Assembly (NCBI GenBank): GCA_016342755.1
Contig: JAEINS010000008.1
Location: 1 to 64,000 of the forward strand
Direction of reading: 5' to 3'
Length of the DNA: 64,000 bases
Source of the DNA: Melioribacteraceae bacterium
Lineage (GTDB): Bacteria; Bacteroidota; Ignavibacteria; Ignavibacteriales; Melioribacteraceae
Position numbers and translations under genes: made by a program. Positions 6,366 to 38,876 of the stretch are shown here, piece after piece. How positions within the stretch are numbered: position 1 is the stretch's first letter; the number at the start of each line of letters is the position of its first letter. A model generated the notes under the pieces. That model made no database searches. It was not told the origin of the DNA and saw only the letters and a program-made list of their open reading frames with translations.

Positions 6366-6781
6366 TAAAATTTGAAACGACAAATATTAGCAGGAAAAAG
6401 ATTTTTGTAAATACCTTAGTAATTCTGTTGGTTACTATTTTAGTTATTCTTGCGAAAAATTATTCCGGCAGTTTGTTAAATATATCAGAGTGTAAATTCA
6501 AAGTAATTACCGGGCTTAGCTGTCCAACATGCGGAATGACACGGGCATTTTTAGCCTTTCTCGATTTAGATATATTTAGCTCATTAGGATATCATTTACT
6601 AGCACCATTTTTCTTTGCATTTGCTATATTTATAATTCTAAAGTATTTTGCTGAACTCTTAATATTTAAAGAAATTAATATTATTTCCAAATGGAACTTA
6701 AAACCCAAATTATTAATTTTAACATTTGTTTCCTTAATATCTTTTTGGATAATTAGAATTGTTAGCGAAGTAATAGGATAG
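6362..6781 (+). CDS. DUF2752 membrane protein
   Basis: A 139-residue protein with the DUF2752 signature CPTCGMTRAF near residues 52-61 and three to four membrane helices. The family is widespread and uncharacterised; the paired cysteines next to the membrane may be redox-active or metal-binding, but that is inference. The start is GTG, overlapping the stop of the upstream membrane-protein gene by four bases. The two probably work together. Confidence 0.82.
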   Translation: MIKFETTNISRKKIFVNTLVILLVTILVILAKNYSGSLLNISECKFKVITGLSCPTCGMTRAFLAFLDLDIFSSLGYHLLAPFFFAFAIFIILKYFAELLIFKEINIISKWNLKPKLLILTFVSLISFWIIRIVSEVIG

Positions 6782-6863
6782 AAATCTTAGGCTTGTTAAA
6801 TATTAACATTTGTAACAATTAAGGAGAAAATTGAAATTTGTAAATATTGTAAGTGAACAAAAC

Positions 6864-6877
6864 GTTTCAAATGAACC
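6864..6877 (+). promoter_or_regulatory. Candidate activator-binding palindrome (imperfect)
   Basis: GTTTCA, two bases, then TGAACC. It is an imperfect copy of the palindrome at 6951 and of the site at 12457, which lie upstream of the two cytochrome units. The position about 150 bases upstream of the candidate sigma-54 promoter suits an enhancer site. Confidence 0.5.
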
Positions 6878-6950
6878 GAATGGAACAAACTGTCTCACGA
6901 AGATTATAAGATAAAGTTTTGTAATAAGTTAACAAATGTATTTAACCAAT

Positions 6951-6970
6951 AGTGTTTCAAATGAAACACT
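6951..6970 (+). promoter_or_regulatory. Candidate activator-binding palindrome (perfect arms)
   Basis: AGTGTTTCAAATGAAACACT has 9-base arms that pair perfectly around AA. The same core GTTTCA-N2-TGAAAC recurs at 12457 before the second cytochrome unit. It lies about 50-70 bases upstream of the sigma-54-like element at 7018. Inference: it is an upstream activating site for the sigma-54 regulator encoded at 11115. Confidence 0.65.
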
Positions 6971-7017
6971 TACAAAACAGTTTAATTGCAGTTAAATGAG
7001 ATTTTAAGGTGATATTA

Positions 7018-7033
7018 TTGGCTTAATAATTGT
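7018..7033 (+). promoter_or_regulatory. Candidate sigma-54 promoter
   Basis: TTGGC, then TTGT, with ten bases between the -24 GG (7020-7021) and the -12 dinucleotide GT. The consensus has GG-N10-GC, so the -12 element departs by one base. It stands 50 bases before the c554-like gene. Supported by upstream palindromes and the sigma-54 activator in the same locus. Confidence 0.5.
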
Positions 7034-7083
7034 TATTAAAGATGTTTACTATTTAATTAGAAAATTGTGTTTATGGAGGCTAC

Positions 7084-7647
7084 ATGTTAAAAGGTAAAAT
7101 ATTTTCGATATTCACATTATGTGTGATTTTATTGCTTAGTTTTTCTAGCGATTCTTTTGCGCAAAAAGCTCACGAATTTGTTGGTGTAAAAACTTGTGGA
7201 ATGTGCCACAAAAAAGCCGAAGACGGCGAACAGCTTAAAATATGGGAAAAAAGTGCTCATGCTAATGCTTATAAAACATTAACTACCGCAAAAGCTGAAG
7301 AGGTAGCTAAAAAAGCTGGTATAAAAGGAAAAGCTTCAGAGGCAAAAGAATGTTTGATGTGCCATGCTACAGCTTATGATGTGGATAAAAAATTAATAGG
7401 CAAAAAATTTAAATTAGAAGAGGGTATTCAGTGCGAATCTTGCCACGGTGCCGGAAGTGATTACAAGAAAAAGAAAGTTATGCAAGATCATGCTAAAGCT
7501 GTAGCTACTGGTATGACAGAATATAAAGATGATGCAGCAATTGAAAAGCAATGTATAACTTGCCATAACGAAAAAAGCCCGACATTCAAAAAATTTGACT
7601 TTGCAAAAAGATGGGCCGAAATTAAACATCCTACACCAAAAAAATAA
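7084..7647 (+). CDS. Tetrahaem c554-like cytochrome c
   Basis: A 187-residue exported protein with a signal peptide ending near SFAQ and four CXXCH haem sites: CGMCH, CLMCH, CESCH and CITCH. The stretch from the first haem, with Q-x4-W-x2-SAHANAYKTL, is typical of the cytochrome c554 family, small periplasmic electron carriers. A GGAGG sits just before the ATG. It heads a cluster with an outer-membrane barrel and two larger cytochromes, which suggests it delivers periplasmic electrons to an outer-membrane conduit. The electron partner is inferred, not shown. Confidence 0.88.
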   Translation: MLKGKIFSIFTLCVILLLSFSSDSFAQKAHEFVGVKTCGMCHKKAEDGEQLKIWEKSAHANAYKTLTTAKAEEVAKKAGIKGKASEAKECLMCHATAYDVDKKLIGKKFKLEEGIQCESCHGAGSDYKKKKVMQDHAKAVATGMTEYKDDAAIEKQCITCHNEKSPTFKKFDFAKRWAEIKHPTPKK

Positions 7648-7662
7648 GTGTCTGAGTTAAAC

Positions 7663-8934
7663 ATGAAACGATTAATTTTTGTATTTATTCTATTAATTGG
7701 ATTTAGTTCAATTTCTACTGCGCAGAATCTAAATGGAAGATTTACTTCGGCAGTTTATTCGTATGAAAGAGCAACTTCTTTATACGAATCAGAAACAAAT
7801 CTCAGAAATTTCAATATTCTAAGTCTTAATGTTAATAAAGATCAGTTTTCTCTTAAAACAAGAATGAACTTTGAAACTGATCTTTCGGCATCTTACGATA
7901 ACGATCCCAGGTTGAGATTATATAATCTGTATCTTGAAGGGAGAAATCTCTTTAATATTGCAACTGTTAAGGTTGGCCGTCAGTCAATTATCAATTCATT
8001 TGGCGGATTGTACGATGGTGTTAATTTAAAATTTAAGTATAGTGATTATTCATTAACAACTTATTTTGGCGGCAATGTTCCAGCTTACCAAAAGTTTGAA
8101 TTAACAGACGATTTAAAAGAAGATTATATAATGGGCGCAAAGTTTTCAACATGGTTTATGGATGGTCTAAAACTTAATTTAAACTATGTGCGTAAAAACT
8201 TTAAACCTTTAGAATATGAAACTATGCGTTTGGATCAGGATTTTCATCCAATTACTTACTTAGTTAGAAAAAATTCGCAGCAGTATCAGTTTGTTTCTGC
8301 TGATGCACACTATTATCAGAAAAATGAATTTAACGTAGATGCAAAAATTGATTACGATTTGAACTTTAAAGTTTTATCTAAGTTTCAGATTGGCGGTAAA
8401 ATTTATGCAACTGATAAATTAGGTGTAAATTTATTCTATAATTACCGCGAACCAAGAATAGCTTACAATTCCATTTTTTCAGTTTTTAACTATGGAAACT
8501 CTCAGGAAATAGAAGCTGGTGTTGATTATAAAATCAATAAGCTTTTTACTGCTGTTTGTAAGTTTGCGAATGTTGAATATGAAGATGATAATTCGGCAAG
8601 ATTATATGCCGGATTAAATTCGAAATATGGTAACATAAGTTATAGAAAAACTTTTGGCGTTGCTGGTGAACTTGATGCGGTTTCTATTTATACTGCAAAA
8701 ACTTTGCTCGACGGAATGTTAACCCCTTCAGTTGGTATATCTTATACAAGTTATAAACTATCTGAGGATGAAGAAGATTCGAATAATCTAGTAAGTCTGC
8801 TTGCAGGTGTAAACATAAGACCTTGGAAAAAATTCTCTTTTGATTTACAAGGTCAATATACCGACAATGAGATTTATAAGAATGACTTTCGATTTTTACT
8901 AAAGATAAATCACTGGTTTAATACAAATTTTTAG
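7663..8934 (+). CDS. Outer-membrane beta-barrel protein of a porin-cytochrome cluster
   Basis: The ATG at 7663 begins a clean signal peptide (MKRLIFVFILLIGFSSISTAQ), so it is preferred to the in-frame GTG at 7648. The mature part, about 400 residues, shows alternating hydrophobic/polar strands, many Tyr and Phe, and a Phe at the C-terminus (WFNTNF), the usual barrel end. There is no haem motif. It sits between a periplasmic-type tetrahaem cytochrome and two larger cytochromes, the arrangement of porin-cytochrome conduits that carry electrons across the outer membrane. The conduit role is inferred from context. Confidence 0.78.
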   Translation: MKRLIFVFILLIGFSSISTAQNLNGRFTSAVYSYERATSLYESETNLRNFNILSLNVNKDQFSLKTRMNFETDLSASYDNDPRLRLYNLYLEGRNLFNIATVKVGRQSIINSFGGLYDGVNLKFKYSDYSLTTYFGGNVPAYQKFELTDDLKEDYIMGAKFSTWFMDGLKLNLNYVRKNFKPLEYETMRLDQDFHPITYLVRKNSQQYQFVSADAHYYQKNEFNVDAKIDYDLNFKVLSKFQIGGKIYATDKLGVNLFYNYREPRIAYNSIFSVFNYGNSQEIEAGVDYKINKLFTAVCKFANVEYEDDNSARLYAGLNSKYGNISYRKTFGVAGELDAVSIYTAKTLLDGMLTPSVGISYTSYKLSEDEEDSNNLVSLLAGVNIRPWKKFSFDLQGQYTDNEIYKNDFRFLLKINHWFNTNF

Positions 8935-8943
8935 TAGACTACT

Positions 8944-10143
8944 ATGAAATCAATTTATTATTATTTATCGATACTTGGAATTATTGGACTCTTTTTGTCA
9001 ACTACTGCTTTTACTCTTGAAGGGTCTGAAGAAGAAGTTTCGAATAAAAAGATCATTAAATTTTCTCATTCGCTTCATGCTGATGCAGCTGAATGCGCTG
9101 ATTGTCATACGTCCGTTTTAGACAGTGATGAACTTTCACGTTCATTACTTCCTGAAAAAGAAGCATGCGCTGAGTGCCATGATGTTGAGGATGATGAAAA
9201 CTGTGAAATGTGTCATTACGAAGATAATTATGAGGCTCTTGTTTATGAGCCGTCAAATCTGATGTTCAGTCATAAATTTCATAGCAGCAGTTATGAAGAA
9301 ATGACTTGTGCAAAATGCCATGTTGAAGAATCAAAATCAGAAGAAGAAGAGATAACAATTGTTAATCCCGAAATGATTAGCTGTTCTAGCTGTCATAGCG
9401 ATTCACAAGTTGCTTCGATGAACTGTGAAACCTGCCATACAACTACTGATAATCTTACTCCGGAAAATCATTTAACAAATGATTTTAAATCAATGCATTT
9501 TAATTATGCGGAAAATGACGGTGAAAATTGTGTGATGTGTCACTCAAATGATTTCTGCGAAGCTTGTCACGTTTCAGGCAGATTTGATGGTACAGAATCG
9601 GCTGATGCCAGCTTTGGTACTTTATATTCGCCACATAAGTTTCTTAATAATGCTAAAGAGCAAAAGCTATCCAGAGTTCATGAAATTGGTTACAGATTTA
9701 CACACGGTATTGATGCAAAAGGTAAATCAATGGAATGTTCAACCTGCCATCAGGCAGAAACATTTTGTGTTGAGTGCCATAGCGATGGCGGCGGTGAAGT
9801 TGCAATGAATATTGTACCGATGTCTCACATGGTAAGTGATTTTACCACAAAAGGTGTTGGAACAGGCGGCGGCGAACATGCTGTTTTAGCAAGACGTGAT
9901 ATTGAAAATTGTATGGTATGCCACGATGTTCAGGGCGCAGATCCTAACTGTATTATGTGCCATACTGATACTGATGGAATTAAAGGTACAAATCCAAAAA
10001 CACATGATAGTTCTATTTCTGATATAAGTGCGGTATTCCATGATGATGACGGCGCAGTCTGTTATACATGTCATATAACTGCTTCTGCAAGTACAGGACA
10101 AGCTGGAAATGGATTCTGTGGATACTGTCATGGATCTAAATAA
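8944..10143 (+). CDS. Multihaem cytochrome c, 14 CXXCH sites
   Basis: A 399-residue exported protein with 14 CXXCH motifs, about one haem per 27 residues: CADCH, CAECH, CEMCH, CAKCH, CSSCH, CETCH, CVMCH, CEACH, CSTCH, CVECH, CMVCH, CIMCH, CYTCH and CGYCH. Many extra His residues (for example KFSHSLH, FSHKFHSS, HMVSDF) could serve as distal ligands. The N-terminus is a signal peptide without a lipobox cysteine. The gene starts nine bases after the barrel gene. Haem density fits a long-range electron wire, either in the periplasm or within the barrel. No catalytic family was recognised. Confidence 0.88.
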   Translation: MKSIYYYLSILGIIGLFLSTTAFTLEGSEEEVSNKKIIKFSHSLHADAAECADCHTSVLDSDELSRSLLPEKEACAECHDVEDDENCEMCHYEDNYEALVYEPSNLMFSHKFHSSSYEEMTCAKCHVEESKSEEEEITIVNPEMISCSSCHSDSQVASMNCETCHTTTDNLTPENHLTNDFKSMHFNYAENDGENCVMCHSNDFCEACHVSGRFDGTESADASFGTLYSPHKFLNNAKEQKLSRVHEIGYRFTHGIDAKGKSMECSTCHQAETFCVECHSDGGGEVAMNIVPMSHMVSDFTTKGVGTGGGEHAVLARRDIENCMVCHDVQGADPNCIMCHTDTDGIKGTNPKTHDSSISDISAVFHDDDGAVCYTCHITASASTGQAGNGFCGYCHGSK

Positions 10144-10168
10144 TAATTTGAAATATAGGTTTTTAATC

Positions 10169-11032
10169 ATGAAAAAATTATTTGCATATACATTATTTAT
10201 CGGATCATTTTTGTTGGTATTATCTTCATGCAGCGAATTGAATGATGATATAACAGTTGAACCGACAAATATGGTTAGTGTTCATAAAGACGGCTTTGGT
10301 AAAATGTCATCAGAAAATTTCCATGGCAAAACTCTTGCAAAAAATAATTGGAATATCAAAGAATGCAGAAGTTGTCATGGATTCGATTATAGCGGTGGAA
10401 CAGCGGAAAGTAGCTGTAATACTTGTCATACTAATGGTCCTGATGAATGTAATACTTGTCATGGTAATTTTGCAAATCCAAAATCTATTGCACCGCCAAC
10501 CGATTTAGCGGGAAATATTGAAAGTACATATCCCGGAGTTGGAGCACACGTTGCACATGTTATGAACGAAGAAAGTGTTGGGCAAAATGTTGGGTGTTTT
10601 GATTGTCATCCATCTACTTCTACAAATGAAGAATTTGTCTTTGCTCATATAAACGAACTTCCAGCGGAAGTTAATATTAGAGGATTGGCCGCAGTTCAGG
10701 CTAACCCGGCAAGTTATGATTATACAGGCAATACATGTTCAAATGTATATTGTCATGGTCATTTTGAATTTAGTAAGGCTTCATCCAAAAATCAATGGGT
10801 TTATACTGCTGATAAAATGGAAGGAAATAAGTTTAATCCAAAATGGACTAAAGTTGATGACACACAAGGTGCGTGCGGAACTTGTCATGATCTTCCTCCT
10901 AAAGGACATGCGGCAGTTAGCGGTGGTTTAGCAAGCTGTACAACTTGCCATTGGGATGTTGTTGATAACGAAGGAAAAATTAAAGATAACTTAAAACACA
11001 TTAATGGTGAAATTAATGTGTATGGTAATTAG
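10169..11032 (+). CDS. Lipoprotein multihaem cytochrome with CX4CH motif
   Basis: The ATG at 10169 gives a lipoprotein signal peptide with lipobox VLSSC; a longer reading starting at 10109 would destroy it. The 287-residue protein has six CXXCH sites (CRSCH, two CNTCH, CFDCH, CGTCH, CTTCH) and one CX4CH (CSNVYCH). The CSNVYCHG...W...CGTCHDLPPKGH pair matches the CX4CH/CXXCH domain described in Geobacter-type cytochromes. Lipid anchoring and the neighbouring barrel suggest the outer face of a porin-cytochrome conduit. The seventh haem at the CX4CH site is probable but unproved. Confidence 0.85.
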   Translation: MKKLFAYTLFIGSFLLVLSSCSELNDDITVEPTNMVSVHKDGFGKMSSENFHGKTLAKNNWNIKECRSCHGFDYSGGTAESSCNTCHTNGPDECNTCHGNFANPKSIAPPTDLAGNIESTYPGVGAHVAHVMNEESVGQNVGCFDCHPSTSTNEEFVFAHINELPAEVNIRGLAAVQANPASYDYTGNTCSNVYCHGHFEFSKASSKNQWVYTADKMEGNKFNPKWTKVDDTQGACGTCHDLPPKGHAAVSGGLASCTTCHWDVVDNEGKIKDNLKHINGEINVYGN

Positions 11033-11114
11033 TTCACAATTATAAAAAGATTCAATTTTTATATTAGATTTCATGTCATAAATAATTAAATTGTAACAAA
11101 ATATTTGGTTATTT

Positions 11115-12443
11115 ATGGCTTTTAATAAAAACTTTACAGACGATATATTAGACTCCCTCGGTGAGGGAGTTTTTACTGTTGATAAAAACTTCAAAATAAA
11201 ATTCTTTAACAAGGCTGCAGAAAAAATAACAGGTCATAAACGTGATGAAGTTATTGGTAAATTCTGTAAGCACATCTTTCGGTCGGATCTTTGTTTTCAT
11301 GATTGTCCAATCGCAAAAGTTCTTCAGACAAAAAAGAACATTTATGATTTTGAAACAAACATTCAATCCAAAGCTAAAGATACAATTCCAATTAAACTTA
11401 ATTCAGCAGTTCTTTATAATGAAAATGAAGAACCTGTTGGCGGTGTTATTTCTTTTAAGGATTTGTGTGACGTAGAATCATTAAAATTCTCATTAAAGAA
11501 AGAAGCCGATTATCACGGTATTATTGGAAGAAGCAAGCAGATACGTGAAATATTTGATCTTATTGATGAAATTTCAGATTCCGATGCTTCAGTATTAATA
11601 CATGGTCAGTCCGGTACCGGAAAAGAACTTGTTGCAAATGCTATTCAGAAAACATGTCATAGAAAAGATAAGCCGTTTATCAAAATAAATTGTTCTGTAT
11701 TTCCAGATAATCTATTGGCAAGTGAATTATTTGGGCATGTAAAAGGAGCCTTTACAGATGCAGTTAAAGACAGACCGGGCAGATTTGAAATTGCTGACGG
11801 CGGAACCATCTTTTTAGATGAAGTTGCCGAAATGCCTTTGCAGATGCAGGTAAAATTACTTCGTGTTTTGCAGGAAGGAAGTTTTGAGCGGGTTGGAGAA
11901 TCAGTTACCAGAAAGGCCGATGTTAGAGTTATAGCCGCGACTAATATCGATATCCAGGAAGCTCTTAAGAATGGAACATTTAGAGAAGATCTATATTACA
12001 GATTAAATGTAATACCAATTGAAGTACCGCCTTTATCGGCAAGAATGGATGATCTAATCCCATTAATAAATCACTTTTTAAGTAAGTACTCAATTCTATA
12101 TAATAAAGAAATTAAAGAAGTTGACGAAGAAACAATTGAAACACTTAGTTCCTATGACTGGCCTGGTAATATTCGCGAGCTGGAAAACGTAATTGAATAT
12201 GCTTTTGTTAGAGCTAATAAAGAAAAGTCTATTTCAAAAGATAAACTTCCGCTAATTTTAAGGAACAATAAAGCTAAATTTGTCCCGCAAACGAACTTTA
12301 TTAGATCCTCTGATTTTGATAAAAATGAGATGATTGAAATTTTGAAAAGAAATAAATGGAATAAAACAGCAGTAGCAAAAGAACTTGGAATTGGCAGAAC
12401 AACACTTTGGCGAAAATTAAAAACACTGGGTCTGGTTGAGTAA
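11115..12443 (+). CDS. PAS-containing sigma-54-dependent transcriptional activator
   Basis: A 442-residue enhancer-binding protein. Residues 7-115 form a PAS domain containing three close cysteines (C-x8-C-x3-C, in FCKHIFRSDLCFHDC). Residues 133-360 form the AAA+ domain with Walker A GQSGTGKE near 164. The sigma-54 contact loop near residue 211 reads GAFTDA, not the consensus GAFTGA. The C-terminus is a Fis-type helix-turn-helix (NKTAVAKELGIGRTTLWRKL). There is no receiver domain, so the PAS/cysteine unit probably senses redox or a ligand directly. It sits between two cytochrome groups and likely controls both through the nearby palindromes. Confidence 0.92.
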   Translation: MAFNKNFTDDILDSLGEGVFTVDKNFKIKFFNKAAEKITGHKRDEVIGKFCKHIFRSDLCFHDCPIAKVLQTKKNIYDFETNIQSKAKDTIPIKLNSAVLYNENEEPVGGVISFKDLCDVESLKFSLKKEADYHGIIGRSKQIREIFDLIDEISDSDASVLIHGQSGTGKELVANAIQKTCHRKDKPFIKINCSVFPDNLLASELFGHVKGAFTDAVKDRPGRFEIADGGTIFLDEVAEMPLQMQVKLLRVLQEGSFERVGESVTRKADVRVIAATNIDIQEALKNGTFREDLYYRLNVIPIEVPPLSARMDDLIPLINHFLSKYSILYNKEIKEVDEETIETLSSYDWPGNIRELENVIEYAFVRANKEKSISKDKLPLILRNNKAKFVPQTNFIRSSDFDKNEMIEILKRNKWNKTAVAKELGIGRTTLWRKLKTLGLVE

Positions 12444-12456
12444 TCTGTTTCAAAAC

Positions 12457-12470
12457 GTTTCAAGTGAAAC
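12457..12470 (+). promoter_or_regulatory. Candidate activator-binding palindrome
   Basis: GTTTCA-AG-TGAAAC, the same core as the palindrome at 6951. Another GTTTCA half lies at 12448. It stands about 130 bases upstream of a sigma-54-like element at 12597, a normal enhancer distance. Inferred target of the activator encoded immediately upstream. Confidence 0.6.
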
Positions 12471-12541
12471 ATACTGTTCATAAGGTGTAACTTATTTAAT
12501 AATAATGTATTAAGATCGAATTGTCTTTGTTAACGGCAAAG

Positions 12542-12558
12542 TGAAACGCACCGTTTCA
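12542..12558 (+). promoter_or_regulatory. Inverted repeat with GTTTCA/TGAAAC halves in outward order
   Basis: TGAAACG and CGTTTCA flank CAC. The half sites are those of the palindromes at 6951 and 12457 but in the opposite arrangement. It may be a second, differently spaced activator site or a hairpin. Confidence 0.4.
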
Positions 12559-12596
12559 TATCCCCTTAGTTTAACTTCTTTTTTCAAACCTTTTTT

Positions 12597-12611
12597 TGGC
12601 ATTTTTTTTGG
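12597..12611 (+). promoter_or_regulatory. Candidate sigma-54 promoter
   Basis: TTGGC with ten bases between the -24 GG (12598-12599) and a GG at the -12 position (consensus GC). It precedes the 11-haem-site cytochrome gene by 37 bases. The match is one base short of consensus at -12, as at 7018, and the upstream palindromes support it. Confidence 0.5.
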
Positions 12612-12647
12612 ATAACTACATCTTTTATAATAAGCAGGTATTGTGAA

Positions 12648-14084
12648 ATGTCAAAAAAAACAGTCTTATTTTATCTTTTATCTCTTACCATAATATTTTT
12701 TATTGGTTGCGAAGAAGAGAAAAAAGATCCTGAAACAATAGCAGAACTTACCTTAAAAATGTCTGTTAATTCTTGTGAAGGATGCCACACAAATTATGAG
12801 CACTTAAAAACAGTTCATACTCCTGATCCTCCATCAACCGAGGCGGCCGGCTGTGGCGGTGAAGCACCTCATTTTGAACCTTATGACAGAGTATTTTTGG
12901 GCGGTGATGGTTTTACTCAATTTAAATCTGGTATTCATGGAAAACTGGATTGTGTAGCCTGTCATAATGGTGTTGATGGTACAGACGATAAAGTATTAGC
13001 ACATTCAGATAATTTTATTACTCATCCTTCGTTAGTTCCTGAAGAAAAATGTGCAAGCTGCCATCCTGACATTGTTCAAAGAACGCAAAATAGTATCCAT
13101 AGAGAAGGTTCTGGCCAGAAAAGTATGGTATCGCAAAGATACGGTGCCGGTAATGGTTTAGACGCATTCGAAAGTTTACCTCATGATTTAAAAGAAGGTT
13201 ATGACGCTAACTGTGCAAAATGTCATGGTACTTGTGGGGATTGCCATATAGTTAGACCTAAAGCCGGTGGCGGTGGTTTAAAAAGCGGTCATGCTTTTAT
13301 TCGTACTCCTGATATGGTAAATACATGCGTTACTTGTCATGTTAGTCGTGGCGGACATGCTTACTTAGGTGTTGCATCCGGAACTGTTCCTGATGTTCAT
13401 TTAACAAAAGCCGGATATAATTGTTTAGACTGCCACTCGCAAAATGAAGTTCATGGCGACGGAAAATATGTTGATCAAAGATATAAAATGTCGCTTAAAC
13501 CAGAATGTGAAGATTGTCATTCAAATTTAGAAGAAGCAAATAATTATCATAAGACTCACTTAAGTACTTTTAATTGCCAGACATGTCACTCGCAAGATTA
13601 TAATAACTGCGGCAGTTGTCATATACCTGGACTACCTGAAGAAGGTGCCTTAGCAAAAGTTTCTGGCGGTGTAGGAGCAAGAATTGCTTCATATCAAGGT
13701 TTCAAGATTGGTATGAATCCGCTGAAAACAACTTCAAAGCCACAATATAAGATGGCATTGTTAAGAAGATCTTTATCAGCACCTGACAGTTGGAGCGGAT
13801 ATGGTGTGGAAAACTTATCTAACTTCGATGTAGCACCTACATTTAAATATACAACACCTCATAACATTATTAAATGGACAACAAGAACCGGCTTCAAAAA
13901 TGATGAAGGTAACTGGGAAGGATATGCAAAATGTTATGATGGCTGTCATATTATTGCTGAAGGTGATTCGCTAAGAAATAAAGGATTATATCTATTTAAT
14001 GAAGATCTTGAAGATTGGGAATTAAATGCCGATAAAGATATTGTTGTTGACGGAAAACTTCCTGCATGGTGGGGAGTAAACTAA
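12648..14084 (+). CDS. Lipoprotein multihaem cytochrome, ten CXXCH plus one CX3CH
   Basis: A 478-residue exported cytochrome with lipobox FIGC after residue 18. Ten CXXCH motifs are present (CEGCH, CVACH, CASCH, CAKCH, CGDCH, CVTCH, CLDCH, CEDCH, CQTCH, CGSCH) and a late CYDGCH, a CX3CH variant that could hold an eleventh haem. CAKCH and CGDCH are separated by only two residues (CAKCHGTCGDCH). The last 140 residues are haem-poor apart from the CX3CH and could be a binding or catalytic region. No close enzyme family was recognised. It is followed by a rhodanese lipoprotein gene after 46 bases. Confidence 0.85.
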   Translation: MSKKTVLFYLLSLTIIFFIGCEEEKKDPETIAELTLKMSVNSCEGCHTNYEHLKTVHTPDPPSTEAAGCGGEAPHFEPYDRVFLGGDGFTQFKSGIHGKLDCVACHNGVDGTDDKVLAHSDNFITHPSLVPEEKCASCHPDIVQRTQNSIHREGSGQKSMVSQRYGAGNGLDAFESLPHDLKEGYDANCAKCHGTCGDCHIVRPKAGGGGLKSGHAFIRTPDMVNTCVTCHVSRGGHAYLGVASGTVPDVHLTKAGYNCLDCHSQNEVHGDGKYVDQRYKMSLKPECEDCHSNLEEANNYHKTHLSTFNCQTCHSQDYNNCGSCHIPGLPEEGALAKVSGGVGARIASYQGFKIGMNPLKTTSKPQYKMALLRRSLSAPDSWSGYGVENLSNFDVAPTFKYTTPHNIIKWTTRTGFKNDEGNWEGYAKCYDGCHIIAEGDSLRNKGLYLFNEDLEDWELNADKDIVVDGKLPAWWGVN

Positions 14085-14130
14085 ATTGCACACTAATTAA
14101 CTAACAAATATATAATAATAGGAGTAACAA

Positions 14131-15114
14131 ATGAATTTAAGAAAGCTGTTTTATTTAATGTTGATAATTCCCATACTGTTTTTGAATACAGCATGTAGCG
14201 ATGATGATGGCGACGATCCGGTTGAAGTTAATGAAGCTGAGGTATTAGTTAAATATTTAGAAGCTGGTGATGATTTCTTAAATACTGCTGCACCTGCAAT
14301 GATTAAATCTTCAGATGTATTACCTAATGTTGATAATACAAACTGGACAATTATTGACATTAGAAGTGCTTCTGATTTTGCAAACGGACACATTAAAAAT
14401 GCGGTTAATAAAACTACTGGCGAATTATTAAGTTATTATGAAACTAATAATCTTTCAAGTAAAGAAAAAGTTGTAATAGCTTGTTATACAGGGCAAACTG
14501 CTGGTTGGGCAACTTCTCTATTAAGAATCATGGGGTATGCTAATGTTTATGATTTAAAATGGGGTATGAGTAGCTGGAATCCTGCAACAAAAGGCAGCTG
14601 GGTAAATACAGTTGCTGGTGGAAATGGAAAAGCCGGTCAGTTAGTAACTGCTGCAACAGCTAAAGCAGCTAAAGGTGATCTACCAAAATTAAAAACTGGT
14701 GAAACAGAAGCTGAAGATATTTTAAGAGCAAGAGTTGAAGCTGTATTTGCAGAAGGATTTGGCGCGGCAGCGGTTGGTAATGGAGATGTATTTGGCGCGT
14801 TAAGCAACTATTATATAGTTAACTATTGGTCTGAAGATCATTATAATATGATGCATATTCCCGGTGCTGTTCAATATACACCAAAGGCTGCACTAAAATT
14901 AGATGCAGATCTTAAAACTTTACCAACTGATAAACCTGTTGCAGTTTATTGCTATACCGGACAAACATCAGCACACGTTGCAGCAATATTAAAAGTTATT
15001 GGTTACGACGCAAAATCAATTAAATTTGGTGTTAACGCAATGAGTTATGATGCAATGCCAGGAACCAGATTTATTGAATCTACAGATGTTCATGATTACG
15101 CATTAGTAAAGTAA
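14131..15114 (+). CDS. Tandem-rhodanese lipoprotein (copy 1)
   Basis: A 327-residue lipoprotein (lipobox LNTAC) with two rhodanese-like domains, about residues 45-160 and 185-325. Both carry an active-site loop beginning with cysteine: CYTGQTAGWA and CYTGQTSAHVA. Rhodaneses carry sulfane sulfur, or in some cases bind selenium or other oxyanion products, on this cysteine. Lipid anchoring puts it at the envelope next to the cytochromes. The gene is closely similar to the one at 15867, so they are duplicates. In Geobacter, as I recall, some outer-membrane conduit clusters also contain rhodanese-like lipoproteins. Confidence 0.88.
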   Translation: MNLRKLFYLMLIIPILFLNTACSDDDGDDPVEVNEAEVLVKYLEAGDDFLNTAAPAMIKSSDVLPNVDNTNWTIIDIRSASDFANGHIKNAVNKTTGELLSYYETNNLSSKEKVVIACYTGQTAGWATSLLRIMGYANVYDLKWGMSSWNPATKGSWVNTVAGGNGKAGQLVTAATAKAAKGDLPKLKTGETEAEDILRARVEAVFAEGFGAAAVGNGDVFGALSNYYIVNYWSEDHYNMMHIPGAVQYTPKAALKLDADLKTLPTDKPVAVYCYTGQTSAHVAAILKVIGYDAKSIKFGVNAMSYDAMPGTRFIESTDVHDYALVK

Positions 15115-15125
15115 AAATATATTTT

Positions 15126-15154
15126 AAAGCTCCTTAAATAAGGAGCTTTTTTTT
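15126..15154 (+). terminator. Rho-independent terminator
   Basis: AAAGCTCCTT and AAGGAGCTTT pair around a four-base loop, then a T run. It closes the unit that ends with the first rhodanese gene. Confidence 0.9.
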
Positions 15155-15203
15155 GAAATTATACTTTACGTTTATAAAATTATTAAATTCAAAGGGCAGT
15201 AAA

Positions 15204-15674
15204 ATGAGCGAGATGCTTGGAAATCAATATTTTATGGCGAGAAAATTTTCTGAGGCCGAAAAGGAACTTGAAGAATGTTCTATTTCAAATCCTAAAAATA
15301 AGTTAATTAAAAAGAAATTAATAATTTGTTATGTTGAAACCGGGAAATTAATAAATGCCATCGAACTTTTTATTTCATTAATCAGAGAAGATATTGATAT
15401 TATTATTAATACTCATCCGATAGATGATGACTGTCCATGCCCTGAACTTATATATAATTATGAGAACTCACTGGATCTTAATAACCAGGGGGAAAAGGAT
15501 TTGCTGATTCTTGGTATTCTTTGGCTTTACTGCGATTTTAATAAATCGATGGAAAAATTTGAAGAGGCTGTTCAAAAAAAATCAAGTGATATTGAGGCTA
15601 AAACTATTTTAAGAATAATGAAAGCCAAAGAATTAGAGCTTAAACAGAAGGACAATAATCCATATATATCATAA
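15204..15674 (+). CDS. Small TPR-like protein
   Basis: A 156-residue helical protein. The ATG at 15204 has an AAAGGG ribosome site; an upstream TTG at 15153 lies in the terminator tail and is rejected. Residues 5-60 and 95-140 look like degenerate tetratricopeptide repeats (LGNQYFMARKFSEAEKELEE; CDFNKSMEKFEEAVQKK). A central DDDCPCPEL motif has two close cysteines. No signal peptide is present, so it should be cytoplasmic. It lies between the two rhodanese paralogues; a role in assembling or maturing cytochromes is possible but only suggested by position. Confidence 0.65.
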   Translation: MSEMLGNQYFMARKFSEAEKELEECSISNPKNKLIKKKLIICYVETGKLINAIELFISLIREDIDIIINTHPIDDDCPCPELIYNYENSLDLNNQGEKDLLILGILWLYCDFNKSMEKFEEAVQKKSSDIEAKTILRIMKAKELELKQKDNNPYIS

Positions 15675-15699
15675 CCTATTATGCTTAATTGGAGAAGAA

Positions 15700-15765
15700 A
15701 TGAGAAGTAAAATCTTCATTTTAATTTGTTCAACTTTAACTGCAATATATGTTAGACAACCTTAA
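15700..15765 (+). pseudogene. Short signal-peptide-like ORF, possible gene remnant
   Basis: A GGAGAAG site is followed by an ATG and 21 codons (MRSKIFILICSTLTAIYVRQP) ending in TAA. The start looks like the beginning of an exported protein, but nothing recognisable continues in any frame before the next gene. It may be the decayed 5' end of a lost gene or a leader peptide. Low certainty. Confidence 0.3.
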
Positions 15766-15866
15766 AACCCCAGTATATCTAATTAAACTAAGATTTGAAC
15801 TAATTACTAGTTTGATATATGGATAAATATTTTAAGAAAATAAATTTTACAATCATCAGGAGCAAA

Positions 15867-16847
15867 ATGAACTACAAAAAGCTTTTTTACTTAATGCTGA
15901 TTCTTCCAATTTTATTTTTAAATACTGCCTGCAGCGATGATTCTGTCACTCCGGATGATGTTGATGAAACGGAAGTTCTAATAAAATATTTAGAAGCAAA
16001 TGGAGATTTTTTAAATTCAACGGCTTGTCCTGCTATTATAAAAGCTGATGCTGTTAATACAAATATTTTGACAGGTGTTGATCAGGTTGTTATTGATATT
16101 AGAACAGCAGTGGATTATAATATTGGTCATATTAAAGGTGCGGTAAATGTTGTTGCCAACGATATATTAAGCTATTACGAAACAAATAATCTTTCGAATA
16201 AAACGGTTGTAGTTATAGCTTGTTATACTGGACAGGGTGCCGGATGGGCAACCAGTCTTTTAAGAATAATGGGATACAACAATGTTTTTGATTTGAAGTG
16301 GGGAATGTGCAGTTGGAATGCTTCAACAAATAATCATTGGGTTACAAATACTTCGAATGCAAAGGCTTCTCAATTTGTAAATACAGTTACAGAAAAACCA
16401 GCAGTTGGAGATTTACCAAAAATAGAAACTGGTAAAACAGAAGGTTCAGATATTTTACGCGCCAGAGTAGAAGCAATATTTGCAGAAGGTGTTGGTCTGG
16501 TTAAAATTGCCAACAGTGATGTTTTTGCCGTCCCGAATAAATATTTTGTTGCTAACTACTGGTCTGAAGATCATTATAAATTGATGCATATTCCCGGTGC
16601 TGTTCAATATTCTCCGGGAACTTCTTTAAAATCAGACAATGATCTTAAAACTTTGCCAACAGATAAAATAGTTGCTGTTTATTGTTATACTGGTCAGACT
16701 TCAGCACAGGTTGCCGCAGTTTTAAGAGTTATCGGTTATGATGCAAAATCTATTTTATACGGCGTTAATGGCATGAGCTATGATGCAATGCCAGGTACAA
16801 GATTTATCGAATTAAATGATGTTCACGATTATGAATTAGTAAAATAA
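15867..16847 (+). CDS. Tandem-rhodanese lipoprotein (copy 2)
   Basis: The ATG at 15867 follows CAGGAG and yields a lipoprotein signal peptide with lipobox LNTAC; upstream in-frame codons from 15819 are not supported. The 326-residue product has two rhodanese domains with active loops CYTGQGAGWA and CYTGQTSAQVA. It matches the protein encoded at 14131 along its whole length, with nearly the same signal peptide, so the pair arose by duplication. The differences include an extra cysteine in the N-terminal region (STACPAIIK) and CSWNAS in place of SSWNPA. An envelope sulfur-transfer or oxyanion-binding role is inferred. Confidence 0.87.
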   Translation: MNYKKLFYLMLILPILFLNTACSDDSVTPDDVDETEVLIKYLEANGDFLNSTACPAIIKADAVNTNILTGVDQVVIDIRTAVDYNIGHIKGAVNVVANDILSYYETNNLSNKTVVVIACYTGQGAGWATSLLRIMGYNNVFDLKWGMCSWNASTNNHWVTNTSNAKASQFVNTVTEKPAVGDLPKIETGKTEGSDILRARVEAIFAEGVGLVKIANSDVFAVPNKYFVANYWSEDHYKLMHIPGAVQYSPGTSLKSDNDLKTLPTDKIVAVYCYTGQTSAQVAAVLRVIGYDAKSILYGVNGMSYDAMPGTRFIELNDVHDYELVK

Positions 16848-16858
16848 TTATTAATTAT

Positions 16859-16883
16859 ACTCTCGTTATTCGGGAGTTTTTTT
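16859..16883 (+). terminator. Rho-independent terminator
   Basis: ACTCTCG pairs with CGGGAGT (one G-T pair) and is followed by T7. It separates the second rhodanese gene from the 24-haem cytochrome. Confidence 0.8.
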
Positions 16884-16918
16884 GTTAAATTTTAATTCAC
16901 TACTTAATAGGAGGAACA

Positions 16919-19900
16919 ATGAGAAAAATAGTTTTACTTTTTGCTTTGTTCATTTTTTTCCTCAACATAAGCGAAATAATCGCGCAGCCGCAACATTTTT
17001 CTACAAGTATCCACAAGACAAGAATTGGAAAAGCTACATTTTATGATAAGGAAAATGGCGGCTTTGAAACTCTTACAAATGTACCTATAGAAGATATGGG
17101 CTGTATTGATTGTCATGCTCCTACAAATGCTCTGGGAATTGCTTACGACGAATCTAATCCATGGACTGGTATGACATGTTTAGATTGTCATAATGGTTCA
17201 CCTGCAGAAGGAAATGTTTCGCAGGATCAATGTCTGGCTTGTCATGGCCGTCAGGCTGCGGAAATAGGACCAATGAATTTATCTGATGTACACAGAACAG
17301 CCGGCTTTAAATGCTGGGATTGTCACGGTACAGAAGATATGCATGGCGATGGCACCGTGTATGAATCGATGCTTGCTGATGGAGCCACTGATGCTGATTG
17401 TGCTGATTGTCATACAGCAGAATCAATTCCTGATCACACTGCTTATGATCCGCATGGTGGAAAGCTGCACTGTACAACCTGTCATGCTGAAACAGTTATT
17501 ACTTGCTATAACTGTCATCTTGAAAGTCAGGTTGAGCATCATGTAAAAAGAGCGAAACAAAAAGTGAAAGGTTTCATGATTTTAGTTAATCGTGAAAAAG
17601 ACGGAAAAGTTTATCCGGCAACATTCCAGTCATTATCACACGATGGAAACAGCTGGATTGCAATGGGACCTTATACATCCCACTCAATTAAATCGGAAGG
17701 AAGAACATGCGAAGATTGTCATAATTCTGAAAATGTTCAAAACCTTGTTAATACTGGCGAATTAAAATTTGCTACATGGAGTGACACTGATAGTTCTTTA
17801 TCAACGCTTACCGGCATTGTTCCATTACCCGAAGATTACGCAACCAATTTTAAAATGGATTTCATAAAGTATGATGGTAACACATCCGATCCGGCAGCTG
17901 CTTCTAAAAACTGGTCTAAGATTGGAAAAGATGTTGCTGATGGTTTCCAGTTAAAATATGCAACTGCATTAACTTCTAAGCAGATTAAAGCTTTAAACAC
18001 TAACATGGATATGGTTGCTAACTTTGAAACCAGTATTCATAAAACAAGAGCCGGAAAACCTTATTGGTATGATAAAGAAAATGGCGGTTTCGAAACTCTG
18101 ACCGGGGTTCCTATTGAAGAAATGGGTTGTGTAGAATGTCATTCAACCACCGATGCAAACGGAGTTGCTTATGACGAATCAAATCCATTTGTAGAAATGA
18201 GTTGTAAAGATTGTCATGCTAACAATGAATTTAGTGCCGAGAGTGTTTCTCAGGAACATTGTTTAACATGTCATGGTCGTCAGGCTGCAGAAATGGGACC
18301 AATGAATTTAACTGATGTTCATAGAACTGCCGGATTTGTTTGCTGGGATTGTCATACTTCTGAAGATATGCACGGTGACGGAACAGTTTATAGTTCTATG
18401 TTAGAAGATGGCGCAATTGATGCCGATTGTTCTACATGCCATACAGAGGAGTCATTGCCTGCCGGTCACTCAGACAGCGATCCGCACGATGGAAAACTTC
18501 ACTGTACAACTTGTCATGCTGAAACAGTTATTACTTGCTATAACTGTCATCTTGAAAGTCAGGTTGAGCATCATGTAAAACGTGCAAAGGCAAAAGTAAA
18601 AGGATTCATGATATTAGTTAATCGTGAAAAAGATAATAAAGTTTACCCTGCTACATTCCAGTCATTATCGCATGATGGAAACAGTTGGATAGCTATGGGT
18701 CCTTATACATCGCACTCAATTCAATCTGAAGGAAGAGTTTGTGCTGATTGTCACGGCAGCGAAAATGTAACGGCTTACAAAACTAATGGCGAGTTAAAAT
18801 TTGCTACATGGAATGAGGCTGATAGTTCACTTGCAACTTTAACTGGAATAATTCCATTACCGAAAGATTATGCAACCAAATTCAAAATGGATTTCATAAA
18901 ATATGATGGCAATACTTCTGATCCGGCTGGTCCTTCTAATAATTGGTCTAAAATTGGGAAAGATGTTGCTGATGGATTCCAGCTTGATTTTGCAACACCG
19001 TTAACTGATGGTCAGATTACTGCTTTGAGTATTGCAATGGACGAACAGAGTAAGAATTTTGCTACATCTCTTCATGGAACAAGAGCCGGCAAACCGACTT
19101 GGTATGATAAAGAGAATGGCGGCTTTGAAACTCTTACAAATGTACCGATTGAAGAAATGGGTTGTGTTGAATGCCATGCTCCAACCGATGCAAATGGGGA
19201 TATAGTGGTAAGTGCAGATTATGAACCTGGCTGCATAGATTGTCATGCTACCAAAACAGATTTCTCAGTTAATCAGGAAACATGTTTAAGTTGTCATGGT
19301 CGTCAATCAGCGGAAGTATCCATGGGACTCAGTAACGTTCACATGGCTGCGGATATGAAGTGCTGGGACTGCCATTCATCAACAGATATTCATGGTGATG
19401 GAAATGAGTATGAATCAATGCTTGCAGATGGTGCAATGACAGCAGATTGTGAATCTTGTCATATTGATGGCAATACGGATTTCCCAAATGCACCAGCGCC
19501 TAAGCATAATGGTACAATAACAATGCATCTCGATAAAGTACATTGTTTATCGTGCCATGCAGAAACTGTAATTACATGTTACAACTGTCATCTTGAAAGT
19601 CAAGTTGAACATCATGTTAAACGGGCAAAAACAAAACTAAAAGATTTTATGATATTAGTTAATCGTGAAAAAGATGGTAAAGTTTACCCGGCTTCATTCC
19701 AGTCAGCAACCTATCAGGGAAATGCCTGGATTGCGATGGGACCGTTTACACCTCATACTGTTTCAAATGAGCCTAGAGCATGTAACGAATGTCATCAAAA
19801 CTTTGGCGGCGATATAGAAGCTATAAAAGAATATAATGAAACCGGTGAAATCACTTTTGCAACATGGAGTGATACCGATAGTTCTTTAGTTTCTAAAAAA

Positions 19901-20410
19901 GGAATTATTCCTTTACCAACCGATTATGAACGCGCATGGAAAATGTCTTACATAAAATATGACGGAAACACTTCTGATCCTGCTGCGCCTTCTAATAATT
20001 GGTCAAGCATAGGAAAAGATAAAGCAGACGGATTCCAGTTATTGTATGCAACTGCATTAACTAAAGTACAGATGGCAAAACTTGGTTATGATACTACAAA
20101 AACTGTTACTTCTGTTGATGATGAGTTAGAGAAGGTTCTTCCAAATGATTTTGAATTGGAACAGAATTATCCTAATCCATTTAATCCTACTACAACTATT
20201 AGTTATCAGGTTCCTTCTAAATCTAGGATTACTATTAGGATTTATGATGCTTTAGGTGAACTTGTTGGAACTTTGGTTGATGAAGAAAAAGCTGCTGGCA
20301 GATATTCAGTTATATTTAATGCAGGAGATCTTGCGAGTGGAATTTATTTCTACAAATTAGAAACAACTACAGGATTTGAAGCTACTAAAAAGCTTATGCT
20401 GCTTAAATAG
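16919..20410 (+). CDS. 24-haem cytochrome of three octahaem repeats with T9SS sorting domain
   Basis: A 1163-residue exported protein (signal peptide ending IIAQ; AGGAGG ribosome site). Three homologous units of about 350 residues start near residues 25, 365 and 712. Each has eight CXXCH sites in the same order, giving 24. Each unit contains CLxCHGRQ, CWDCH, CHAETVITCYNCHLESQVEHH and a haem-free FMILVNREKD...VYPA block. Residues about 1080-1163 (NYPNPFNPTTTI to ATKKLMLLK) are a type A T9SS sorting domain. The protein is therefore predicted to cross the outer membrane by T9SS and sit at or leave the cell surface, as an extracellular electron wire or reductase. The catalytic role is unknown. 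Confidence 0.92.
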   Translation: MRKIVLLFALFIFFLNISEIIAQPQHFSTSIHKTRIGKATFYDKENGGFETLTNVPIEDMGCIDCHAPTNALGIAYDESNPWTGMTCLDCHNGSPAEGNVSQDQCLACHGRQAAEIGPMNLSDVHRTAGFKCWDCHGTEDMHGDGTVYESMLADGATDADCADCHTAESIPDHTAYDPHGGKLHCTTCHAETVITCYNCHLESQVEHHVKRAKQKVKGFMILVNREKDGKVYPATFQSLSHDGNSWIAMGPYTSHSIKSEGRTCEDCHNSENVQNLVNTGELKFATWSDTDSSLSTLTGIVPLPEDYATNFKMDFIKYDGNTSDPAAASKNWSKIGKDVADGFQLKYATALTSKQIKALNTNMDMVANFETSIHKTRAGKPYWYDKENGGFETLTGVPIEEMGCVECHSTTDANGVAYDESNPFVEMSCKDCHANNEFSAESVSQEHCLTCHGRQAAEMGPMNLTDVHRTAGFVCWDCHTSEDMHGDGTVYSSMLEDGAIDADCSTCHTEESLPAGHSDSDPHDGKLHCTTCHAETVITCYNCHLESQVEHHVKRAKAKVKGFMILVNREKDNKVYPATFQSLSHDGNSWIAMGPYTSHSIQSEGRVCADCHGSENVTAYKTNGELKFATWNEADSSLATLTGIIPLPKDYATKFKMDFIKYDGNTSDPAGPSNNWSKIGKDVADGFQLDFATPLTDGQITALSIAMDEQSKNFATSLHGTRAGKPTWYDKENGGFETLTNVPIEEMGCVECHAPTDANGDIVVSADYEPGCIDCHATKTDFSVNQETCLSCHGRQSAEVSMGLSNVHMAADMKCWDCHSSTDIHGDGNEYESMLADGAMTADCESCHIDGNTDFPNAPAPKHNGTITMHLDKVHCLSCHAETVITCYNCHLESQVEHHVKRAKTKLKDFMILVNREKDGKVYPASFQSATYQGNAWIAMGPFTPHTVSNEPRACNECHQNFGGDIEAIKEYNETGEITFATWSDTDSSLVSKKGIIPLPTDYERAWKMSYIKYDGNTSDPAAPSNNWSSIGKDKADGFQLLYATALTKVQMAKLGYDTTKTVTSVDDELEKVLPNDFELEQNYPNPFNPTTTISYQVPSKSRITIRIYDALGELVGTLVDEEKAAGRYSVIFNAGDLASGIYFYKLETTTGFEATKKLMLLK
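16994..20090 (+). repeat. Three tandem octahaem-encoding repeats inside one gene
   Basis: Approximate units are 16994-18014, 18015-19050 and 19051-20090. Units 1 and 2 are closest: 17481-17548 and 18513-18580 are identical over 68 bases, while the third unit has many synonymous changes there. This suggests an older first duplication and a later duplication or gene conversion between units 1 and 2. Confidence 0.88.
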
Positions 20411-20436
20411 TTTTAAGTTCTTATCTAAATATTAAG

Positions 20437-20468
20437 ATCCCGATTTTTAATTAAGTCGGGATTTTTTT
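20437..20468 (+). terminator. Rho-independent terminator, possibly bidirectional
   Basis: ATCCCGA (20437-20443) pairs with TCGGGAT (20456-20462) and T7 follows. It lies between the convergent 24-haem gene and the response-regulator gene. Confidence 0.85.
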
Positions 20469-20515
20469 ATTTTCATTTGTTTGTCTTTCGAATTTACAAC
20501 AGCAAGAGGGTAGTT

Positions 20516-37703: not shown

Positions 37704-37714
37704 GAGAAAATAGA

Positions 37715-38362
37715 ATGAAAGAAGTTTTAATATATACAAGGTTCGAAAGGTTTTGGCATTGGTCACAGGCTTCTCTGATTATGTTTTTGGCAGTTACCGG
37801 ATTTGAGGTTCATGGTTCGTTTGAGATGTTTGGTTTTGAAAAAGCAGTAATGTTTCACAGAGCTGCTTCTTATGCATTGCTTGGACTAATAGTTTTTGCA
37901 ATATTCTGGCATCTGACAACTGGTCAATGGCGACAGTATTTTCCAACAACAAAAAATCTTTTTGCACAAATTAGATATTATATGTTTGGTATGTTTAAAG
38001 GCGAAGATCATCCTACTCATAAAACTGAGATCAGTAAATTAAATCCGCTACAAAGATTAGTTTACATACAATTTAAGCTGATATTAATTCCTATTGTAGT
38101 AATTTCCGGTATCTTCTATCTGTTTAATAAATCGATTGATAAAAACAATATCATAGTTATAAGTGAATTTAAACTTGAAACAATTGCTGACTGGCACGTA
38201 CAGGGCGCGTTTTTATTGATCGTGTTTCTAATTATTCATGTATACATGACTACAACCGGTACAAGTATTACTTCTAATATTAAAGCTATGATTACCGGAC
38301 TTGAAGAACTTGAAAGTGAAAATAAAAATGATAAAAAAGGCGAGGCAAAAAATGAAGGCTAA
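37715..38362 (+). CDS. Di-haem cytochrome b, membrane subunit
   Basis: A 215-residue membrane protein with four hydrophobic helices and histidines placed for b-type haem: RFWHWSQASL, VMFHRAASYA, FWHLTTGQWR and LIIHVYMTTTG. It resembles the cytochrome b561/hydrogenase b-subunit fold, which passes electrons between the quinone pool and periplasmic haem proteins. It starts 11 bases after the octahaem gene, so it is the probable quinone-linked partner. Its tail is charged and overlaps the next gene by 11 bases. Confidence 0.88.
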   Translation: MKEVLIYTRFERFWHWSQASLIMFLAVTGFEVHGSFEMFGFEKAVMFHRAASYALLGLIVFAIFWHLTTGQWRQYFPTTKNLFAQIRYYMFGMFKGEDHPTHKTEISKLNPLQRLVYIQFKLILIPIVVISGIFYLFNKSIDKNNIIVISEFKLETIADWHVQGAFLLIVFLIIHVYMTTTGTSITSNIKAMITGLEELESENKNDKKGEAKNEG

Positions 38363-38873
38363 ACCATATATGAATCCTTACTTGGCCGGAGTTTTACTTG
38401 GCTTAGTATTATTGTTAACAGTCTATTTAACCGGAAGGGGACTTGGAGCGAGCGGTGCTATTAAAAGTATTGTTATAGAAACTGTTCAAACTGTAACTCC
38501 GGAACATGCTGAGAATACTGCGTACTACAGCAGTTTCAAGGCAACTCATCCTGAAGGCCCGTTACGTTCGTGGCTGGTGTTTGAAGTACTTGGTGTATTA
38601 ATCGGAGCTTTTCTTTCTGGTGTTATTTCGGATAGAGTTTCACTTAAATTGGAAAAAGGACCGCAGACTACAAAAAAAGTTAGAATTCTTGCTGCCATAG
38701 CCGGCGGAATGTTCTTTGGATTTGGATCTCAGCTTGCACGAGGCTGTACAAGCGGTGCTGCGTTAAGCGGTATGAGTGTTATGTCTTTTGGCGGTATTAT
38801 AACAATGATGGCAATTTTTGGATCAGCATATGCGGTTGCTTATTTTTTTAGAAAACTATGGATTCGAGGATAG
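38352..38873 (+). CDS. YeeE/YedE family protein, N-terminal half of a split transporter
   Basis: A 173-residue membrane protein; the ATG at 38352, after GGCGAGG, is preferred over upstream codons inside the cytochrome b gene. It carries the YeeE signature ARGCTSGAALSG in the third quarter and about four helices. Characterised YeeE proteins import thiosulfate using conserved cysteines. Here the usual single polypeptide is divided with the next gene. The two halves probably assemble. Confidence 0.88.
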   Translation: MKAKPYMNPYLAGVLLGLVLLLTVYLTGRGLGASGAIKSIVIETVQTVTPEHAENTAYYSSFKATHPEGPLRSWLVFEVLGVLIGAFLSGVISDRVSLKLEKGPQTTKKVRILAAIAGGMFFGFGSQLARGCTSGAALSGMSVMSFGGIITMMAIFGSAYAVAYFFRKLWIRG

Positions 38874-38876
38874 ATT

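What the first reader, a model, noticed from the sequence alone, without database searches (positions are those of the whole stretch)
7084..11032. Putative porin-cytochrome conduit with c554, barrel, 14-haem and lipoprotein cytochromes
Four adjacent genes supply the parts of an outer-membrane electron conduit. The order (small carrier, barrel, 14-haem, lipid-anchored CX4CH cytochrome) does not match the Mtr or OmcB clusters as I remember them. With the T9SS 24-haem protein downstream it might be a complete extracellular electron path in a group where few are described.
Basis: partly seen in the sequence, partly recalled or inferred. Interest (0 to 1): 0.78.

Follow-up and report, generated by a model that had tools for sequence, protein, structure and literature searches.

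The report
Ignavibacterial outer-membrane electron conduit
Four neighbouring genes make a protein wire that very probably carries respiratory electrons through the outer membrane; it is a real and complete set, but the same gene set was already described in the related bacterium Ignavibacterium album, and most of its relatives carry it.

Summary
Window 7084-11032 encodes a 4-haem c554-type cytochrome, a 22-stranded barrel (AlphaFold2, strand pLDDT mostly above 90), a 14-haem cytochrome and a lipoprotein cytochrome (six CXXCH plus one CX4CH), tightly packed on one strand. The barrel is found in 136 of 164 genomes of the order. In 40 order neighbourhoods read, cytS lies before the barrel in 38, the 14-haem gene follows in 40 and the lipoprotein in 39. 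The set persists in other families of the class.

The interpretation as a porin-cytochrome (Pcc) conduit is supported; the suggested novelty is not. Shi et al. 2014 (PMC4245776) list the pcc cluster of Ignavibacterium album as IALB_1840 (periplasmic cytochrome), 1839 (porin), 1838 (400 aa, 14 haems) and 1837 (outer-membrane cytochrome with atypical motif): the same order and features.

New here: order-wide conservation; a constant 14-haem wire against a surface cytochrome of 5 to 28 CXXCH; and a CbcL-like multihaem/b561 protein just upstream in many relatives, co-occurring order-wide and encoded elsewhere in this genome. The 24-haem T9SS protein is an accessory (26 of 164 genomes). Membrane insertion, direction of flow and substrate remain inferred.

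The parts
7084..7647 (+). cytS: periplasmic 4-haem cytochrome of the c554 family, likely shuttle from the inner membrane to the conduit
   Evidence: PF13435 E=3.7e-20; 4 CXXCH; just upstream of the barrel in 38 of 40 order neighbourhoods (one of the two exceptions is a contig start)
7648..8934 (+). Barrel: outer-membrane beta-barrel sheath (signal peptide from ATG 7663)
   Evidence: 22 strands, strand pLDDT mostly above 90; VIA Z 18 to barrels of TonB receptors over the whole barrel; in 136 of 164 genomes of the order
8944..10143 (+). cyt14: 14-haem wire cytochrome, signal peptide, no lipobox
   Evidence: 14 CXXCH; 40 of 41 order members have 14, with 12 further invariant His; N-terminal half related to multihaem c7-type cytochromes in the PDB, 3ov0 E=2.5e-24
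10169..11032 (+). lipo7: lipid-anchored multihaem cytochrome, 6 CXXCH + 1 CX4CH; likely surface partner
   Evidence: TIGR01904 E=5.3e-10; lipobox LSS-C; 5 to 28 CXXCH in relatives
11115..12443 (+). PAS-sigma54 activator with Fis-type HTH, possible regulator
   Evidence: Pfam PAS, Sigma54_activat, HTH_8; next to the conduit in many Melioribacteraceae
12648..14084 (+). cyt10: lipoprotein cytochrome with 10 CXXCH, accessory
   Evidence: in 10 of 40 order neighbourhoods directly after the sigma54 gene
14131..15114 (+). Double-rhodanese lipoprotein A, accessory
   Evidence: PF00581 two stretches; travels with cyt10
15153..15674 (+). TPR protein, accessory
   Evidence: weak TPR match, E=3.1e-4; travels with cyt10 and rhodanese
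15819..16847 (+). Double-rhodanese lipoprotein B, 67% identical to A
16919..20410 (+). 24-haem T9SS-sorted cytochrome: an 8-haem unit in three copies
   Evidence: 24 CXXCH; Por_Secre_tail E=1.7e-10; units 60-77% identical; relatives in only 26 of 164 genomes

Best explanation
This is the Ignavibacteriales type of porin-cytochrome (Pcc) conduit. Quinol is oxidised in the inner membrane, probably by a CbcL-like multihaem/cytochrome b561 fusion encoded elsewhere in this genome. The c554-type cytochrome carries electrons across the periplasm. The 14-haem cytochrome sits in the 22-strand barrel and passes them through the outer membrane. The lipid-anchored cytochrome at the surface hands them to the final acceptor or to loose surface cytochromes such as the 24-haem T9SS protein. 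Shown: the genes, their conservation, the predicted barrel fold, the haem counts and the co-occurrence with the quinol-oxidase-like protein. Inferred: insertion of cyt14 in the barrel, surface exposure of the lipoprotein, outward direction, and the acceptor (Fe(III) or another extracellular acceptor).
For: Gene order kept across the order and, more loosely, in other families of the class. Barrel in 136 of 164 genomes. 22 strands, no plug, within the 18-22 range published for Pcc porins. 14-haem count constant while the lipoprotein varies from 5 to 28, as expected of a fixed wire and a variable surface end. A 16- or 18-haem gene of the CbcL-like kind upstream of the cluster in about half the order neighbourhoods; barrel and CbcL-like co-occur: 127 genomes both, 9 and 8 one only, 20 neither. 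NapC-like, Rieske, cytochrome b and 11-haem genes upstream in class relatives. Same order and features published for I. album.
Against: No structure shows cyt14 inside the barrel: the joint model gave mostly low pLDDT for cyt14 (below 50 over its C-terminal half) and the model of cyt14 alone is weak. The CbcL-like gene is not next to the cluster in this genome. The co-occurrence table is not corrected for shared ancestry or for incomplete genomes. I. album, which has this cluster, is described as not reducing solid Fe(III) or Mn(IV) oxides, so the acceptor is open.
Confidence: 0.85

Rival explanations
1. A conduit of the same build whose main acceptor is a soluble sulfur or selenium oxyanion at the surface, with the double-rhodanese lipoproteins as part of it, as the ext selenite/tellurite cluster of Geobacter has a rhodanese (ExtH) beside a porin (ExtI).
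For: Two double-rhodanese lipoproteins and an extra lipoprotein cytochrome follow the cluster; the 24-haem and cyt10 proteins match ExtM weakly; ExtI cluster described in PMC5877670.
Against: The rhodanese module is in only a minority of the neighbourhoods while the four-gene core is nearly constant; ExtM scores far below its cut-off (29 and 99 against 800 bits); no ExtH or ExtI model was matched.
Confidence: 0.12
2. The conduit works inward, taking electrons from Fe(II), minerals or partner cells.
For: Mto/Pio conduits of the same build run inward (established knowledge; cited in PMC4245776). The sequence does not show direction.
Against: The linked quinol-oxidase-like proteins resemble CbcL, known for outward flow in Geobacter; a surface lipoprotein cytochrome is present, and Fe(II)-oxidising clusters often lack one; M. 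roseus reduces Fe(III) (PMC6137239).
Confidence: 0.1
3. The barrel is an ordinary transporter that happens to lie among cytochrome genes.
For: Fold matches are to TonB receptors and Occ porins; no Pfam match.
Against: Gene order with cyt14 kept in 40 of 40 order neighbourhoods and in other families of the class; no TonB plug in the model.
Confidence: 0.03

Closest known systems
pcc cluster of Ignavibacterium album, IALB_1840-1837 (Shi et al. 2014, PMC4245776)
   Same: Periplasmic cytochrome, porin, 14-haem cytochrome of 400 aa, outer-membrane cytochrome with atypical haem motif, in the same numbered order
   Different: Compared by published description only; the I. album sequences were not at hand by name
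OmbB-OmaB-OmcB (Pcc) of Geobacter sulfurreducens
   Same: Barrel, periplasmic multihaem cytochrome, lipoprotein cytochrome, a regulator gene beside it
   Different: 8-haem and 12-haem partners in place of 14 and 7; no c554 gene in the core; Shi et al. place the I. album porin and 14-haem protein outside their five groups
MtrCAB of Shewanella
   Same: Barrel with a multihaem wire and a surface cytochrome
   Different: MtrB is larger (28 predicted strands; PF11854) and this genome has no PF11854 match; 10-haem MtrA and MtrC
ext clusters of Geobacter (extABCD, extHIJKLMNOPQS)
   Same: Porin-like protein among multihaem cytochromes; ExtH is rhodanese-like
   Different: No NCBIfam Ext model reaches its cut-off here; different gene order

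Membership tests
Porin-cytochrome (Pcc) conduits | Porin-like outer-membrane barrel, 18 to 22 strands | tested here: met
   22 strands in the AlphaFold2 model; range from PMC4245776
Porin-cytochrome (Pcc) conduits | Adjacent gene for a periplasmic multihaem cytochrome of 5 to 14 haems | tested here: met
   cyt14, 14 CXXCH, signal peptide without lipobox
Porin-cytochrome (Pcc) conduits | Adjacent gene for an outer-membrane, usually lipid-anchored, cytochrome | tested here: met
   lipo7 with lipobox, 6 CXXCH + CX4CH; surface exposure not tested
Porin-cytochrome (Pcc) conduits | The three proteins form a complex that moves electrons across the membrane | not testable with these tools
   needs purification and proteoliposome assay
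I. album type pcc cluster | Order: periplasmic cytochrome, porin, about 400-aa 14-haem cytochrome, outer cytochrome with atypical motif | tested here: met
   by description, not by sequence of the I. album genes
OmbB-type porins of Geobacter | Sequence homology of the barrel to OmbB | not tested
   no OmbB sequence was at hand; PMC6137239 and PMC7399161 report Geobacter-like (OmbB-like) porins in Ignavibacteria
MtrB/PioB | PF11854 match | tested here: not met
   no match for the barrel or anywhere in the genome
ext selenite/tellurite cluster | NCBIfam Ext models over cut-off | tested here: not met
   ExtM weak, 29 and 99 of 800 bits; no ExtH or ExtI model matched

The most novel reading that the evidence does not exclude
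A deep, mostly vertically kept lineage of Pcc conduit in the Ignavibacteria and related families, in which a fixed c554/barrel/14-haem core is combined with exchangeable surface parts (lipoprotein cytochromes of 5 to 28 haems, cyt10, double rhodaneses, T9SS-secreted repeat cytochromes), so that the lineage has a standard socket with acceptor-specific ends.
Probability: 0.3. Interest if true: 0.45.

Novelty: new member of a known kind. Interest (0 to 1): 0.25.

Why it matters
It shows that a trans-outer-membrane electron conduit is close to a core trait of a whole order of sediment and bioreactor bacteria, not an oddity of two type strains. It also ties the conduit to a candidate quinol oxidase, which gives a testable full path from quinone pool to surface. 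The finding itself is ordinary for this group.

Tried and rejected
Joint AlphaFold2 model of barrel and cyt14, read through the stop codons (the two genes share a frame): the barrel was good, cyt14 was poor (pLDDT mostly 60-77 in its N-terminal part, below 50 after that), so its place in the barrel is not tested. Model of cyt14 alone with 53 sequences: only the N-terminal half is passable; Foldseek gave only three weak matches, to cytochrome subunits of alternative complex III, and MtrA was not listed. Foldseek and VIA for the barrel gave generic outer-membrane barrels; MtrB was not among the rows shown, which excludes nothing. PDB sequence search with the barrel profile: chance matches only. 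PF11854 in the order: full-length MtrB-like matches in two genomes, short or weak ones in others. Promoter and terminator scans found no more sites than shuffles, so they say nothing about cotranscription; a search for a sigma54-type -24/-12 site in 6701-20500 found none.

Full report
Observation. The four genes are present as stated. cytS (7084-7647) has 4 CXXCH and is a c554-family protein (PF13435, E=3.7e-20). The barrel gene follows without a gap, the 14-haem gene starts 9 bases after it, and the lipoprotein gene (true start 10169) 25 bases later. The barrel has no Pfam or NCBIfam match. cyt14 has 14 CXXCH. The lipoprotein has a lipobox, six CXXCH and one CX4CH and matches the Geobacter CxxxxCH/CxxCH domain. 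The tight packing suggests an operon; promoter and terminator scans are at the level of shuffles.

Where it comes from. The one named relative found is a Melioribacteraceae MAG (59% identical barrel). The window genome has 4.73 Mb and one copy of the barrel.

Conservation. The barrel is found in 136 of 164 genomes of the order, nearly always once (second rows are mostly pieces of a gene split between contigs), at 39 to 61% identity for near-complete copies. I fetched 40 neighbourhoods. cytS precedes the barrel in 38 (one exception is a contig start), cyt14 follows in 40 of 40, the lipoprotein in 39. In a phylum sample of 395 genomes 57 have the barrel: the order plus other families of the same class. 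In 20 of these class members the same order is mostly kept; cyt14 has 12 or 14 haems in the 18 cases where it was called, and in the other two a long antisense ORF stands in its place in my gene calling.

Anatomy. AlphaFold2 gives a 22-stranded barrel over residues 22-422 with strand pLDDT mostly above 90. Its best structural matches are barrels of TonB receptors (Z 18, 341 to 349 residues aligned), which from established knowledge also have 22 strands; no plug is present. A shared barrel fold shows no function. In 41 order sequences cyt14 has 14 CXXCH in all but one, and 12 other histidines are invariant, enough for bis-His ligation of 12 of 14 haems; the ligands of the other two are open. 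Its N-terminal half is related to c7-type multihaem cytochromes of the PDB (3ov0, E=2.5e-24). The lipoprotein varies from 5 to 28 CXXCH. I read this contrast as a fixed wire and a variable surface end. Most lipoproteins start C-S-(D/E) with more acidic residues nearby, like the surface export signals of Bacteroidetes (SDDDD in B. fragilis; PMC5080379), but they do not match the minimal Capnocytophaga motif, so surface exposure is only suggested.

Path to the quinone pool. In about half of the 40 order neighbourhoods the gene upstream of cytS encodes a protein of about 640 to 890 aa with 16 or 18 haems; the one scanned (L037:1634-4063) has c7-type domains and a C-terminal cytochrome b561. That is the plan of CbcL, nine haems plus a b-type membrane part (PMC6295460). 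The window genome has a 692-aa relative with 11 CXXCH on contig C11. Across the order 127 genomes have both barrel and CbcL-like protein, 9 only the barrel, 8 only the CbcL-like and 20 neither (Fisher p = 8e-13); this ignores shared ancestry and genome completeness. In class relatives NapC-like, Rieske, cytochrome b and 11-haem genes lie upstream instead. In many Melioribacteraceae haem-biosynthesis-like genes and a cytochrome c assembly gene follow the cluster (the haem-biosynthesis names are my reading of the sequences, not a database result).

The accessory genes. Downstream lie a PAS-sigma54 activator, a 10-haem lipoprotein, two double-rhodanese lipoproteins (67% identical), a TPR protein and the 24-haem T9SS protein. 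The sigma54, cyt10, rhodanese, TPR block recurs in 10 of 40 order neighbourhoods. The 24-haem protein is three copies of an 8-haem unit, 60 to 77% identical, with relatives in 26 of 164 genomes. It may be a terminal surface reductase or surface wire, but it is not a constant partner of the conduit.

Comparison with the known. Shi et al. 2014 (PMC4245776) describe the pcc cluster of I. album: IALB_1840 periplasmic cytochrome, IALB_1839 porin, IALB_1838 with 400 aa and 14 haems, the largest Pcc periplasmic cytochrome then known, and IALB_1837 outer-membrane cytochrome with an atypical motif. Locus numbers, lengths and features give the order seen here, and three loci of family f2 (L056, L057, L060) have a cyt14 of exactly 400 aa. 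Shi et al. found this porin and cytochrome distant from their five groups. Later papers report Pcc porins in Ignavibacteria and M. roseus (PMC7399161, PMC6137239). So the cluster is a new member of a known kind. MtrB-type barrels are absent here and full-length in only two genomes of the order. The ext clusters share a rhodanese and a porin but no Ext model reaches its cut-off.

What remains inferred. That cyt14 sits inside the barrel, that flow is outward, and what the acceptor is. I. album carries the cluster but is described as not reducing solid Fe(III) or Mn(IV) oxides, while M. roseus reduces Fe(III). The rhodanese block leaves room for sulfur or selenium acceptors in this branch.

Noticed in passing
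window 36111-40070: Octahaem cytochrome (PF11783, 8 CXXCH), a cytochrome b561 and a sulfur-transport protein (PF04143) lie together, after molybdenum-cofactor genes; possibly a tetrathionate- or sulfur-related reductase.
   Followed up: no
window 16919-20410: The 24-haem protein is a three-fold repeat of an 8-haem unit; relatives with open frames of about 460-500 aa, the size of one unit plus tail, exist in other genomes of the order.
   Followed up: partly
window 14131-15114 and 15819-16847: Two double-rhodanese lipoproteins 67% identical to each other, split by a TPR gene; looks like a local duplication.
   Followed up: partly
L036 (lipoprotein after cyt14, 874 aa): Lipoprotein cytochrome with 28 CXXCH at the place of the 6-CXXCH one.
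   Followed up: no
L110:5488-9656 (own genome, contig C12): Cytochrome b-like gene, a probable Rieske gene and an 8-CXXCH, 763-aa protein in a row, a second possible quinol-oxidising module.
   Followed up: no
window 8944-10143, alignment A2: Only 12 invariant non-motif histidines for 14 haems; two haems may have another distal ligand.
   Followed up: partly
L088-L090: Class relatives with a 12-haem form that lacks the last two haems and the matching histidines.
   Followed up: no
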